A DNA stretch of 64,000 nt from an uncultured Eubacteriales bacterium. GTDB lineage: Bacteria > Bacillota > Clostridia > Saccharofermentanales > UBA5734. The DNA is taken from NCBI GenBank assembly GCA_903835065.1, contig CAILLO010000004.1, forward strand, positions 1-64,000, written 5' to 3'. The notes under the pieces are model-generated. The model was not told the origin of the DNA. It saw only the letters and a program-made list of their open reading frames with translations, and did not search any database. The translations under genes were made by a program, and so were the position numbers. Of this stretch, positions 24,923 to 63,497 are shown piece after piece; position 1 is the first letter of the stretch, and each line of letters begins with the position of its first letter.

Positions 24923-24931
24923 TGCTATAAT
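24923..24931 (+). promoter_or_regulatory. extended -10 promoter for the secDF leader gene
   Basis: TGC-TATAAT (24923-24931), a perfect extended -10 with no convincing -35. It lies 53 bp before ATG 24985 and indicates that the small secreted protein and secDF start a new transcript. Confidence 0.6.
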
Positions 24932-24984: not shown

Positions 24985-25446
24985 ATGAAGCCCCGCAGTG
25001 TCCGACAGCGCCCCGAAAAGGCCCTCTCCGCCGCGAAATCGGCGGTGGCGGTCCTTCTGGCCCTGCTCGTCCTGCAGTCCGGCTTCCTGGGCGGCCTGCC
25101 GGCCGTCGAAGCGCAGTCCGCAGGCCTTTCGGCCCGCGACGGCGCGCGGGTCGCGAAGGAGGCCGCCGGCACGGCCGGCGCGCAGAACCTGGACGCCACG
25201 CCGGCGCTCGCCGCCGACCTGTCCTCGTCCGGTTCGGCCCGACTCCGCTGGGACAGTCCGTCGAGAAACCTGAACGAGGAGGCCCGGTCCCGCCTGCGCA
25301 CCCGCTCCGCCTCCCCGGATTCCCTCGTGCCCGGCCTGACCGGCCGCCGCGCGCTCCGTCCCCCCTACGACCCGGTCGAGGGACTCCACGCCCACGCGAC
25401 CTCGAAGCGCCTGCTGCTGCAGACCGCGCAGCTGGCCGCCGGATAG
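24985..25446 (+). CDS. small secreted protein upstream of secDF, candidate arrest peptide
   Basis: 153-residue protein with a long basic N-region, one hydrophobic signal segment (about residues 19-40) and a plausible cleavage site after VEA. The rest is low-complexity, Ala/Ser/Arg-rich, with no recognisable domain. ATG 24985 follows GAGGAG; an in-frame GTG at 24958 is weaker. It is the only gene between the promoter and secD, and its C-terminal part carries RRALRPPYDP (R125-P126-P127). Known secretion monitors (SecM, VemP and the RAPP-type ApcA/ApdA peptides) are short secreted proteins encoded directly upstream of sec genes. Their nascent chains stall the ribosome. The similarity is architectural; function here is inference. 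Confidence 0.6.
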   Translation: MKPRSVRQRPEKALSAAKSAVAVLLALLVLQSGFLGGLPAVEAQSAGLSARDGARVAKEAAGTAGAQNLDATPALAADLSSSGSARLRWDSPSRNLNEEARSRLRTRSASPDSLVPGLTGRRALRPPYDPVEGLHAHATSKRLLLQTAQLAAG

Positions 25447-25450
25447 CCCT

Positions 25451-25558
25451 CTTCCTCTTCCGGTCCCGCCTTCCCGCCGACCCGATTCTCCGGCTCTCCG
25501 GAACCCGTTCCGGAATCGAACCGCTCCGCGCTCCTGCGCGGAACGTATGGAAAGGAAG
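25451..25558 (+). promoter_or_regulatory. possible anti-Shine-Dalgarno structure controlling secD
   Basis: The sequence cttcctcttc (25451-25460), starting 5 nt after the leader-gene stop, can pair with secD's ribosome-binding region ggaaaggaag (25549-25558): nine of ten positions, including one G-U, with one mismatch. Between them is a perfect 7-bp hairpin tccgcgc/gcgcgga (25525-25542). Together this would mask the secD ribosome-binding site unless a ribosome stalls or is held near the leader's end. Confidence 0.45.
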
Positions 25559-25569
25559 TGCGCTCCCCC

Positions 25570-26886
25570 ATGGCAAAGGGAAATCCCACTCCGGGAAGAA
25601 GCCGCATCCGTGCGACCAAGAACAGCATCTTCTGGTCCGTCGGACTGATCCTGGTCCTTGCGATCGTCCTCGCCTTCGGCATGAGGATCCCCGTCCCCGG
25701 CGCCGGCACCTCGACGATCTACGGCATCAAGGATATCCGCTACGGCATCGACATCAAGGGCGGCTACGACCTCGTGTTCGTCCCCGACGGGCTCGGCCGC
25801 GCGCCGACCGCCGCCGAACTCGACAGCGCCCGCAGCATCATCGAGCTCCGCCTCGACGCCAAGAACATCACGGACCGCGAAGTCACGATCGACAAGACCA
25901 ACGGCCGCATCCTCGTCCGCTTCCCGATGAAGTCCGGCGAGACCACCGCGACCGCCGACGTCAACCAGGCGATCCTCGAGCTCGCCGCGACCGCGAAACT
26001 CACGTTCGTCGACCCGTCCGGCACCGTCGTGATTTCCGGCAGCGACGTCAAGGAAAGCTACTCCGCCTATCAGAGCGGCTCGGCCGTCGTCGTGCTGACC
26101 CTCAACGCGGACGGCGCGAAGAAGTTCTCCGACGCGACCGGCCGGCTGATCGGACAGACGATCACGATCAAGATGGACGACACGACGATCTCGTCGCCGA
26201 CCGTCAAGGTCCAGATCACCGACGGCAACGCGATCATCGACGGCATGGCCGACATGGCCGAGGCCAAGGCGCTCGCCGACAAGATCAACGCCGGCGCGCT
26301 GCCCTTCTCCCTCAAGGCCGTCTCCAACAACGTGATCAGTCCGACCCTCGGCGCCAGCGCCCTCGCAGTGATGGTGAACGCCGGCATGCTCGCCTTCCTC
26401 CTGATCATGATCTTCATGATCCTCTACTACCGCCTGCCCGGCTTCGTGGCGATCCTCGCGCTGATCATGCAGGTGACCTGCACGCTGCTCGCGATCACGA
26501 TCCCGCAGTACACGCTGACCCTGCCCGGCATCGCGGGACTGATCCTGTCGGTCGGCATGGGCGTCGACGCGAACATCATCATCGCCGAACGCATCAAGGA
26601 GGAGATCCGGGCGGGCAACTCGCTCCGGTTCTCGGTCTCCGCGGGCTTCCAGCGCGCCTTCGCGGCGGTCCTGGACGGCAACCTCACCACGATGTTCCCG
26701 GCCGCCCTGCTCCTGATCCTCGGCTCCGGCGCGATCAAGGCCTTCGGCTACACGCTGCTGGTCGGCGTCGCGCTGAACCTGATCACGGGCGTCATGATGT
26801 CCCGCCTGATGACGGGCTCGCTGAGTCTCTATCCTGCGTTCCAGTCCACGTGGCTCTATGGCGGAAGGAGGTCTGAATCGAAATGA
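25570..26886 (+). CDS. secD: protein translocase subunit SecD
   Basis: 438-residue SecD. One N-terminal helix (about 25-45), then the periplasmic-type region opening GIDIKGGYDLVF, then five C-terminal helices beginning near AVMVNAGMLAFLLIM, with GMGVDANIIIAERIKEE, the proton-channel signature of the RND-type family. SecDF uses the proton motive force to complete export of preproteins through SecYEG. ATG 25570 is chosen; GTG 25558 would abut the AAAGGAAG site too closely. It overlaps secF by four bases (ATGA), so the two are coupled. Upstream is the candidate translational leader. Confidence 0.93.
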   Translation: MAKGNPTPGRSRIRATKNSIFWSVGLILVLAIVLAFGMRIPVPGAGTSTIYGIKDIRYGIDIKGGYDLVFVPDGLGRAPTAAELDSARSIIELRLDAKNITDREVTIDKTNGRILVRFPMKSGETTATADVNQAILELAATAKLTFVDPSGTVVISGSDVKESYSAYQSGSAVVVLTLNADGAKKFSDATGRLIGQTITIKMDDTTISSPTVKVQITDGNAIIDGMADMAEAKALADKINAGALPFSLKAVSNNVISPTLGASALAVMVNAGMLAFLLIMIFMILYYRLPGFVAILALIMQVTCTLLAITIPQYTLTLPGIAGLILSVGMGVDANIIIAERIKEEIRAGNSLRFSVSAGFQRAFAAVLDGNLTTMFPAALLLILGSGAIKAFGYTLLVGVALNLITGVMMSRLMTGSLSLYPAFQSTWLYGGRRSESK

Positions 26887-27881
26887 AGCATGTTGATTTC
26901 TACGGCAAGCGCTATATCTTCTTCGCGCTGTCCGCGGCCCTGATGCTGATCACCCTGATCGCGTCCCTGCCCTTCGTCCTCGGCGTCTCCCTGGATATCC
27001 AGTTCAAGGGCGGCAGCGTCCTCAAGTACTACCACGACACGACGATCGATCTCGACAAGGCCGCCTCCGTCGCCGCGACCTCGACCGGCACCAACGTGAC
27101 CGCGCTCGACGCCTCCGACACCGCGTCCGGCAAGCGCATCCTGACCCTCAACATCGCCGGCGACACCGCCCTGACGGTCGACCAGCAGAAGACGCTGGTC
27201 GCCGACCTGATCAAGGCCTTCCCCGACCAGAACATCGTCCTCTCGGAAGCCAACGTCGTCGCGCCCTTCCTCGGCCGCGAATACCTGATGCGCGGCATCC
27301 TCGCCGTCGCGCTGGCCTCGCTGATGATCATCCTCTACGTGGCCTTCCGGTTCAAGACGATCGGCGGCTTCTCGGCGGGCATCTTCGGCGTCGTCGCGCT
27401 GCTGCACGACTGCGTCCTGGTGTTCGGCGTGTTCGTCCTGCTCCGGATTCCGGTCAACGACTCGCTGATCGCCGTGATCCTCACGATCCTCGGCTACTCG
27501 ATCAACGACACGATCGTCGTCTACGACCGGTATCGAGAGAACTACCGGCTCACCGGCGGCAAGATGCCGCTGCCCGAGCTGATGAACCTCTCGATCAACC
27601 AGACCCTGGCGCGCACGATCAACACCACGATGACCGTGTTCGTGTCGATCACCATCGTCTACGTGTTCGCGACGATCTACAACCTGTCGAGCATCCGCGA
27701 CTTCGCGCTGCCCATGATGATCGGCGTGATCTCCGGCGCCTACTCCACGATCTTCATCGCCGGTACGTCCTGGGTCATGTGGAAGACGCGCAAGGGCGAG
27801 CACCTCGCCCCGATGGCGCCTCCTCCGCCGGCCCCCGCGGCCGTTTCCTCGAAGTCCAAATCCGCGAAGGCCAAGGCCTAG
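26883..27881 (+). CDS. secF: protein translocase subunit SecF
   Basis: 332-residue SecF with an N-terminal helix, the LDIQFKGGSVLKY motif, and a C-terminal helix bundle containing YSINDTIVVYDRYRENYR, the SecF signature. An alanine/lysine/proline-rich tail of about 30 residues closes the protein. ATG 26883 sits within the secD stop codon (ATGA). SecF is separate from SecD rather than fused as in Bacillus subtilis, as is usual in many Clostridia. A strong hairpin follows at 27942. Confidence 0.93.
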   Translation: MKHVDFYGKRYIFFALSAALMLITLIASLPFVLGVSLDIQFKGGSVLKYYHDTTIDLDKAASVAATSTGTNVTALDASDTASGKRILTLNIAGDTALTVDQQKTLVADLIKAFPDQNIVLSEANVVAPFLGREYLMRGILAVALASLMIILYVAFRFKTIGGFSAGIFGVVALLHDCVLVFGVFVLLRIPVNDSLIAVILTILGYSINDTIVVYDRYRENYRLTGGKMPLPELMNLSINQTLARTINTTMTVFVSITIVYVFATIYNLSSIRDFALPMMIGVISGAYSTIFIAGTSWVMWKTRKGEHLAPMAPPPPAPAAVSSKSKSAKAKA

Positions 27882-63473: not shown

Positions 63474-63497
63474 CCCTTCCCCCCGATATGCTATAAT
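63470..63497 (+). promoter_or_regulatory. promoter of the LiaF-like gene
   Basis: CTGACC (63470-63475), 16-bp spacer, extended -10 TGC-TATAAT (63489-63497). The -35 overlaps the stop of the preceding gene, so the LiaF-like gene starts a new transcript with a leader of about 70 nt. Confidence 0.78.

What the first reader, a model, noticed from the sequence alone, without database searches (positions are those of the whole stretch)
24985..25570. Candidate secretion-monitor (ribosome arrest) leader upstream of secDF
Seen: a 153-residue protein with signal sequence and no domain, directly before secD on its own promoter. It has R125-P126-P127 in RRALRPPYDP, and post-stop cttcctcttc (25451-25460) is complementary at nine of ten positions to secD's ribosome-binding region ggaaaggaag (25549-25558), with a perfect hairpin in the loop. 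Known: SecM, VemP, MifM and the ApcA/ApdA-type peptides are short exported proteins upstream of sec/yidC genes, and several rely on an R-A-P-P/G motif. Inference: a SecDF autoregulatory monitor in a high-GC Bacillota, with a variant motif.
Basis: partly seen in the sequence, partly recalled or inferred. Interest (0 to 1): 0.8.

Follow-up and report, generated by a model that had tools for sequence, protein, structure and literature searches.

The report
secDF leader peptide, probable secretion monitor
In front of the secDF protein-export genes of an uncultured clostridial bacterium lies a small exported protein whose last residues, up to its stop codon, are conserved in relatives while the rest drifts, the mark of a peptide that jams its own ribosome to sense export failure and switch the export genes on, apparently with a stalling sequence not described before.

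Summary
In detail: a 153-aa exported ORF (24985-25446) without known domain lies directly before secD, behind an extended -10 box. Orthologues precede secD in four genomes of three genera of the family, although the genes upstream change. Between genera identity falls to 27-28%, and what stays is the C-terminus anchored at the stop codon: L-[QR]-x-A-[QR]-L-x-A-G-stop. Within the genus the last 12 residues are identical though 5 of 10 fourfold sites changed, so selection acts on the peptide. RPP is confined to that genus, does not fit the validated RAPP-like consensus and lies 26 residues from the end. The leader meets the published search criteria for secDF-monitoring arrest peptides; secD loci of other Clostridia carry known classes (DG[MK]K-stop, GG[HKN]APP) at the same place. 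Best reading: a termination-arrest secretion monitor with a new motif. A ribosome held at the stop would cover a sequence that can pair with the secD ribosome-binding site; modelling supports this clearly in one genome, moderately in the window, weakly in a third, not in the fourth. No stalling was measured.

The parts
24923..24931 (+). extended -10 promoter element TGCTATAAT of the leader-secDF unit
   Evidence: 2 matches in window against 0.04 expected; the same TGnTATAAT lies before the leader in G001 and G012. No -35 match.
24985..25446 (+). leader ORF, 153 aa, candidate secretion monitor
   Evidence: orthologues before secD in G001, G011, G012
24985..25116 (+). N-terminal signal sequence (residues 1 to about 44)
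   Evidence: sequence: basic start, hydrophobic core, Ala-X-Ala-like sites; hydrophobic N-terminus also in the three orthologues. No signal-peptide predictor was available.
25354..25383 (+). LRPPYDPVEG segment (residues 124-133), conserved within the genus only; possible auxiliary tunnel contact
   Evidence: 10/10 residues identical to G001, with synonymous changes; absent from G011 and G012
25408..25446 (+). C-terminal conserved element R-L-L-L-Q-T-A-Q-L-A-A-G-stop (residues 142-153 plus TAG): proposed arrest sequence, A site at the stop codon
   Evidence: 12/12 identical to G001 with 5/10 fourfold sites changed; L-[QR]-x-A-[QR]-L-x-A-G-stop in all four orthologues; 0 of 179 background ORFs of the genome end A-x-L-x-A-G
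25451..25460 (+). anti-SD sequence just after the stop codon; about 7 of its 10 bases would lie under a ribosome stalled at the stop
25497..25514 (+). 7-bp hairpin between anti-SD and SD
   Evidence: sequence and fold
25525..25542 (+). second 7-bp hairpin
   Evidence: sequence and fold
25549..25558 (+). secD ribosome-binding site GGAAAGGAAG
   Evidence: sequence; GAAAGGAAG kept before secD in all four genomes
25570..26886 (+). secD (ATG 25570)
   Evidence: TIGR01129, 266.6 bits against cut-off 244.4; G001 SecD starts at the same Met-Ala-Lys-Gly
26883..27881 (+). secF
   Evidence: TIGR00966, 239.4 bits against cut-off 160

Best explanation
The ORF is a Sec-monitoring arrest peptide of the SecM/VemP kind that controls secDF, with its own C-terminal motif. 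The protein starts to be exported through its signal sequence. When the last codon is in the P site and the stop codon in the A site, the C-terminal L-[QR]-x-A-[QR]-L-x-A-G segment in the tunnel slows or blocks peptide release. If export pulls on the chain, release goes ahead, the mRNA after the leader folds back and the SD of secD is partly hidden. If export is slow, the ribosome stays at the stop, covers the bases right behind it (anti-SD) and secD is translated more. Shown: conserved gene order, selection on the C-terminal peptide, the position of a pairing partner for the SD after the stop. Inferred: that the ribosome stalls, that it does so at the stop, that Sec pulling relieves it, and that secDF rises.
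For: Orthologues directly before secD in G000, G001, G011 and G012, three genera, with changing upstream genes (GH1 glucosidase, aldo-keto reductase, alpha/beta hydrolase). The stop-anchored C-terminus is the part kept across genera: 7/12 (G011) and 5/12 (G012) identity to the window's last 12 residues; of 179 background ORFs one reaches 5 and none 6. Selection on protein, not RNA. Own extended -10 in three of four. SD opening by a ribosome at the stop: G012 0.13 to 0.84 (0 of 150 shuffles), G000 0.19 to 0.41 (2%), G001 0.31 to 0.36 (10%). The same site in other Clostridia MAGs carries known arrest classes. [quoted passage not shown]), and termination arrest for C. difficile CliM (PMC13183943). 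No Pfam/NCBIfam domain; the single-sequence model is of low confidence, with an N-terminal helix and a C-terminal helix 130-152.
Against: No stalling data. Only four sequences, two of them from one genus. In G011 the SD is rather open whatever the ribosome does, and that leader overlaps an upstream gene instead of having its own promoter. In G000 the predicted SD accessibility varies with how much upstream RNA is folded, and a ribosome at RPP would raise it about as much. Most sister genera of the family lack any leader.
Confidence: 0.66

Rival explanations
1. Arrest monitor, but stalled at the RPP segment as the first reader proposed (a variant RAPP motif); the C-terminus has another role.
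For: LRPPYDPVEG is 10/10 identical in the two genomes of the genus, whose leaders are about 50% identical overall; Pro-Pro slows ribosomes (general knowledge); SD accessibility in G000 rises about as much for a ribosome there.
Against: Absent in G011 and G012; second position is Pro, not A/G/D as in the validated consensus (PMC10987492); 26 residues from the end whereas RAPP-like motifs lie near the C-terminus (PMC12992588); footprint ends about 70 bases before the anti-SD.
Confidence: 0.08
2. Small secreted protein with an extracytoplasmic or SecDF-related function; C-terminus kept for binding or as a protease tag.
For: Signal sequence and a conserved nonpolar C-terminus; a second, weaker conserved patch (LAADLS..RLRW.SP, residues 76-93, 12/17 identical in the genus).
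Against: Middle drifts, no folded domain predicted with confidence, always tied to secD while other neighbours change, and conservation runs to the very last residue; arrest classes occupy this site in other Clostridia.
Confidence: 0.14
3. Plain translational coupling or an RNA attenuator: translation of the leader to its stop opens the secD SD without nascent-chain arrest.
For: In three of four genomes a sequence directly behind the stop can pair with the SD; coupling needs only a translated leader.
Against: Does not explain conservation of the last residues with synonymous change nor the signal sequence; no Rfam element.
Confidence: 0.1

Closest known systems
uDF_DGMK-stop and uDF_NAP-stop arrest peptides (Fujiwara et al. 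2024, PMC10987492)
   Same: Short exported ORF before secDF, no domain, C-terminal residues conserved up to the stop codon; validated members stall with the stop codon in the A site.
   Different: End motif is L-[QR]-x-A-[QR]-L-x-A-G instead of D-G-M-K or N-A-P; no overall similarity seen; arrest not tested here.
VemP (Vibrio) and SecM (E. coli)
   Same: Secreted leader whose stalling opens the SD of a downstream sec gene; VemP controls secDF2.
   Different: Their stall sites are sense codons with different motifs; ours has no such motif.
RQH family / ApdA, ApdP (RAPP-like)
   Same: Leader position before secDF, signal sequence.
   Different: RPP here does not fit R/Q/H-A/G/D-P/G/S-P/G and is not conserved beyond the genus.
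CliM (Clostridia, before yidC; PMC13183943)
   Same: Clostridial leader; C. difficile CliM gives termination arrest with helices in the tunnel; penultimate residue hinders the release factor.
   Different: Controls yidC; motif KYxIW; no sequence similarity seen.

Membership tests
Sec/YidC monitoring substrates (search criteria of PMC10987492) | small ORF without annotated function directly upstream of sec/yidC | tested here: met
   four genomes
Sec/YidC monitoring substrates (search criteria of PMC10987492) | N-terminal secretion signal or TM segment | tested here: met
   hydropathy scan and reading of all four; no dedicated predictor was run
Sec/YidC monitoring substrates (search criteria of PMC10987492) | C-terminal sequence conserved among homologues | tested here: met
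Sec/YidC monitoring substrates (search criteria of PMC10987492) | spacer over 30 residues between signal and conserved end | tested here: met
   about 100 residues in the window; leaders of 126-153 aa
Sec/YidC monitoring substrates (search criteria of PMC10987492) | ribosome arrest relieved by export, inducing the downstream gene | not testable with these tools
   needs translation assays
Sec/YidC monitoring substrates (search criteria of PMC10987492) | SD of target hidden and freed by the stalled ribosome | tested here: inconclusive
   supported in G012 and G000, weak in G001, not in G011
RQH / RAPP-like arrest peptides | (R/Q/H)-(A/G/D)-(P/G/S)-(P/G) near the C-terminus, conserved in homologues | tested here: not met
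   L-R-P-P-Y, 26 residues from the end, absent in two genera
uDF_DGMK-stop | C-terminal D-G-M-K (or D-G-K-K) at the stop | tested here: not met
   ends Q-L-A-A-G, R-L-T-A-G or R-L-K-A-G
uDF_NAP-stop | C-terminal Pro at the stop; Bacteroidota | tested here: not met
   C-terminal Gly

The most novel reading that the evidence does not exclude
A new class of termination-arrest peptide, uDF_AxLxAG-stop, in which a C-terminal L-[QR]-x-A-[QR]-L-x-A-G with no proline and no RAPP-like motif blocks release at the stop codon in response to poor Sec export, in a clostridial family where it arose apart from the DGMK-stop and HAPP-type leaders found at the same site in relatives.
Probability: 0.55. Interest if true: 0.65.

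Novelty: new variant of a known kind. Interest (0 to 1): 0.55.

Why it matters
Arrest peptides before sec genes are patchy and differ in sequence; each new motif shows another way to hold a ribosome. A proline-free motif ending in Ala-Gly-stop would add to the few termination-arrest peptides known and could be tested at once in purified translation systems. It would also show that one clostridial locus, the front of secD, has been taken by at least three seemingly unrelated arrest sequences.

Tried and rejected
RAPP-variant reading: rejected on orthologues and motif definition (PMC10987492). Rfam element: none. Profile search of the leader in 391 genomes drawn evenly from the class: only the window's own ORF fits over its full length; the other hits are partial and mostly weak. 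secA and yidC of the four genomes: no comparable leader. Simple duplex energy between post-stop bases and SD: below 3% of shuffles only in G001 and G012, 19-25% in G000 and G011. Supplementary files of PMC10987492 could not be read, so it is not excluded that this group is listed there. DNA conservation as the cause of C-terminal identity: rejected, synonymous sites have changed.

Full report
What is there. The window (68% G+C) carries a 153-residue ORF at 24985-25446, then secD (25570-26886) and secF (26883-27881). SecD and SecF pass their NCBIfam cut-offs, the leader matches no Pfam or NCBIfam family. An extended -10, TGCTATAAT, ends 54 bases before the leader start; the pattern occurs twice in 64 kb against 0.04 expected. 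No -35 was found.

Relatives. The genome belongs to a family of 23 held species genomes. A search with SecD and a reading of the DNA before it found the leader in four genomes: the window's (G000), another species of the genus (G001, 49-50% identity over the leader), and one genome each of two other genera (G011, G012; 28% and 27%). Other genera of the family have no such ORF before secD where the region is present; three genomes are cut at that point, and secD was not found in one genome and only by a distant match in another. In the other families of the order no such ORF was seen in the loci fetched. A profile search over 391 genomes of the class found no further full-length relative. On a SecD tree the leader-bearing rows need one change, with modest support (71/86). 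The order may be Saccharofermentanales: this rests on my memory of a relative's chromosome length, not on a test.

Gene order. The genes upstream differ: a GH1 glucosidase in G000 and G001, an aldo-keto reductase in G011, an alpha/beta hydrolase in G012 (names from sequence features and general knowledge). secD and secF follow. TGnTATAAT stands before the leader in G000, G001 and G012; in G011 the leader starts with a GTG that overlaps the stop of the upstream gene.

Conservation. Between G000 and G001 the last 12 residues (RLLLQTAQLAAG) are identical, while the stretch 45-75 is 26% identical. Of ten fourfold-degenerate sites in those last 12 codons five differ, so the peptide and not the RNA is conserved. 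G011 ends SLALQVARLTAG, G012 VFGLRIARLKAG: L, A, L, A and G are invariant at -9, -6, -4, -2 and -1, with Q/R at -8 and -5. Against the window's 12-mer these score 7/12 and 5/12; of 179 background ORFs from the same genome one reaches 5 and none 6, and none ends A-x-L-x-A-G. LRPPYDPVEG is 10/10 identical within the genus but absent outside.

RNA. I asked how open the secD SD is when the RNA behind a ribosome edge folds freely. Moving the edge from upstream positions to where it would lie with the stop codon in the A site (11 bases past the stop, an assumed footprint) raises the mean unpaired probability of the SD from 0.13 to 0.84 in G012 (0 of 150 shuffles do so), 0.19 to 0.41 in G000 (2%), 0.31 to 0.36 in G001 (10%), and not in G011 (85%) (position scan; first version). 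In G000 the values before the stop vary between 0.02 and 0.36 with the length of RNA folded, so this part is moderate evidence. A ribosome at RPP would end about 70 bases before the anti-SD.

Neighbours in the class. The same reading of 80 named secD loci from other Clostridia found leaders of two published classes: DGKK/DGMK at the stop (L062, L065, L070, L071, L072, L074) and GG[HKN]APP (L076, L078, L080, L081, L085, L086). This shows that the approach recovers known arrest peptides and that this site is used for them.

Comparison with the literature. PMC10987492 set four criteria for Sec/YidC monitors (small unannotated uORF, localisation signal, conserved C-terminus, spacer over 30 residues); the leader meets all four. 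The paper defines the RAPP-like consensus as (R/Q/H)-(A/G/D)-(P/G/S)-(P/G) and shows stop-codon arrest for NAP-stop and DGMK-stop peptides before secDF. PMC12992588 notes that RAPP/RGPP motifs lie near the C-terminus and are absent from much of Bacillota. PMC13183943 shows termination arrest by a clostridial CliM, with helices in the tunnel and the penultimate residue hindering the release factor. The leader's single-sequence model has low confidence (mean pLDDT 63, pTM 0.22), with a C-terminal helix at 130-152; this fits a helical tunnel element but proves nothing.

Conclusion. The leader most likely monitors Sec export by stalling at its stop codon and so raises secDF. Stalling, its site, its release by export and the effect on secDF are inferred. 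The motif seems new; the supplementary lists of PMC10987492 could not be read.

Noticed in passing
L055:2407-2490, L059:2348-2420: Two secD leaders carry DGKK but not at the stop: 8-10 further residues follow (DGKKTRILYCFT*, DGKKRVFSFIINTV*). If stalling in this class needs the stop codon, these are either lapsed or stall otherwise.
   Followed up: partly
L080:2380, L081:967 (and L076, L078, L085, L086), upstream of secD: GG[HKN]APP leaders before secD in clostridial MAGs; two have K or N in the first place of the RAPP-like motif (GGKAPP, GGNAPP), outside the published R/Q/H.
   Followed up: partly
window 63489-63497: A second TGCTATAAT extended -10 on the + strand, the only other one in the window.
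   Followed up: no
window 25354-25383: LRPPYDPVEG is fully conserved within the genus though absent beyond it; in a ribosome stalled at the stop it would sit 21-30 residues from the P site, near the tunnel exit.
   Followed up: partly
L171 (G000:C15:23403-25451), L172, L173: A second SecA-like protein, below the secA family cut-off, in G000, G011 and G012 besides the normal SecA.
   Followed up: no
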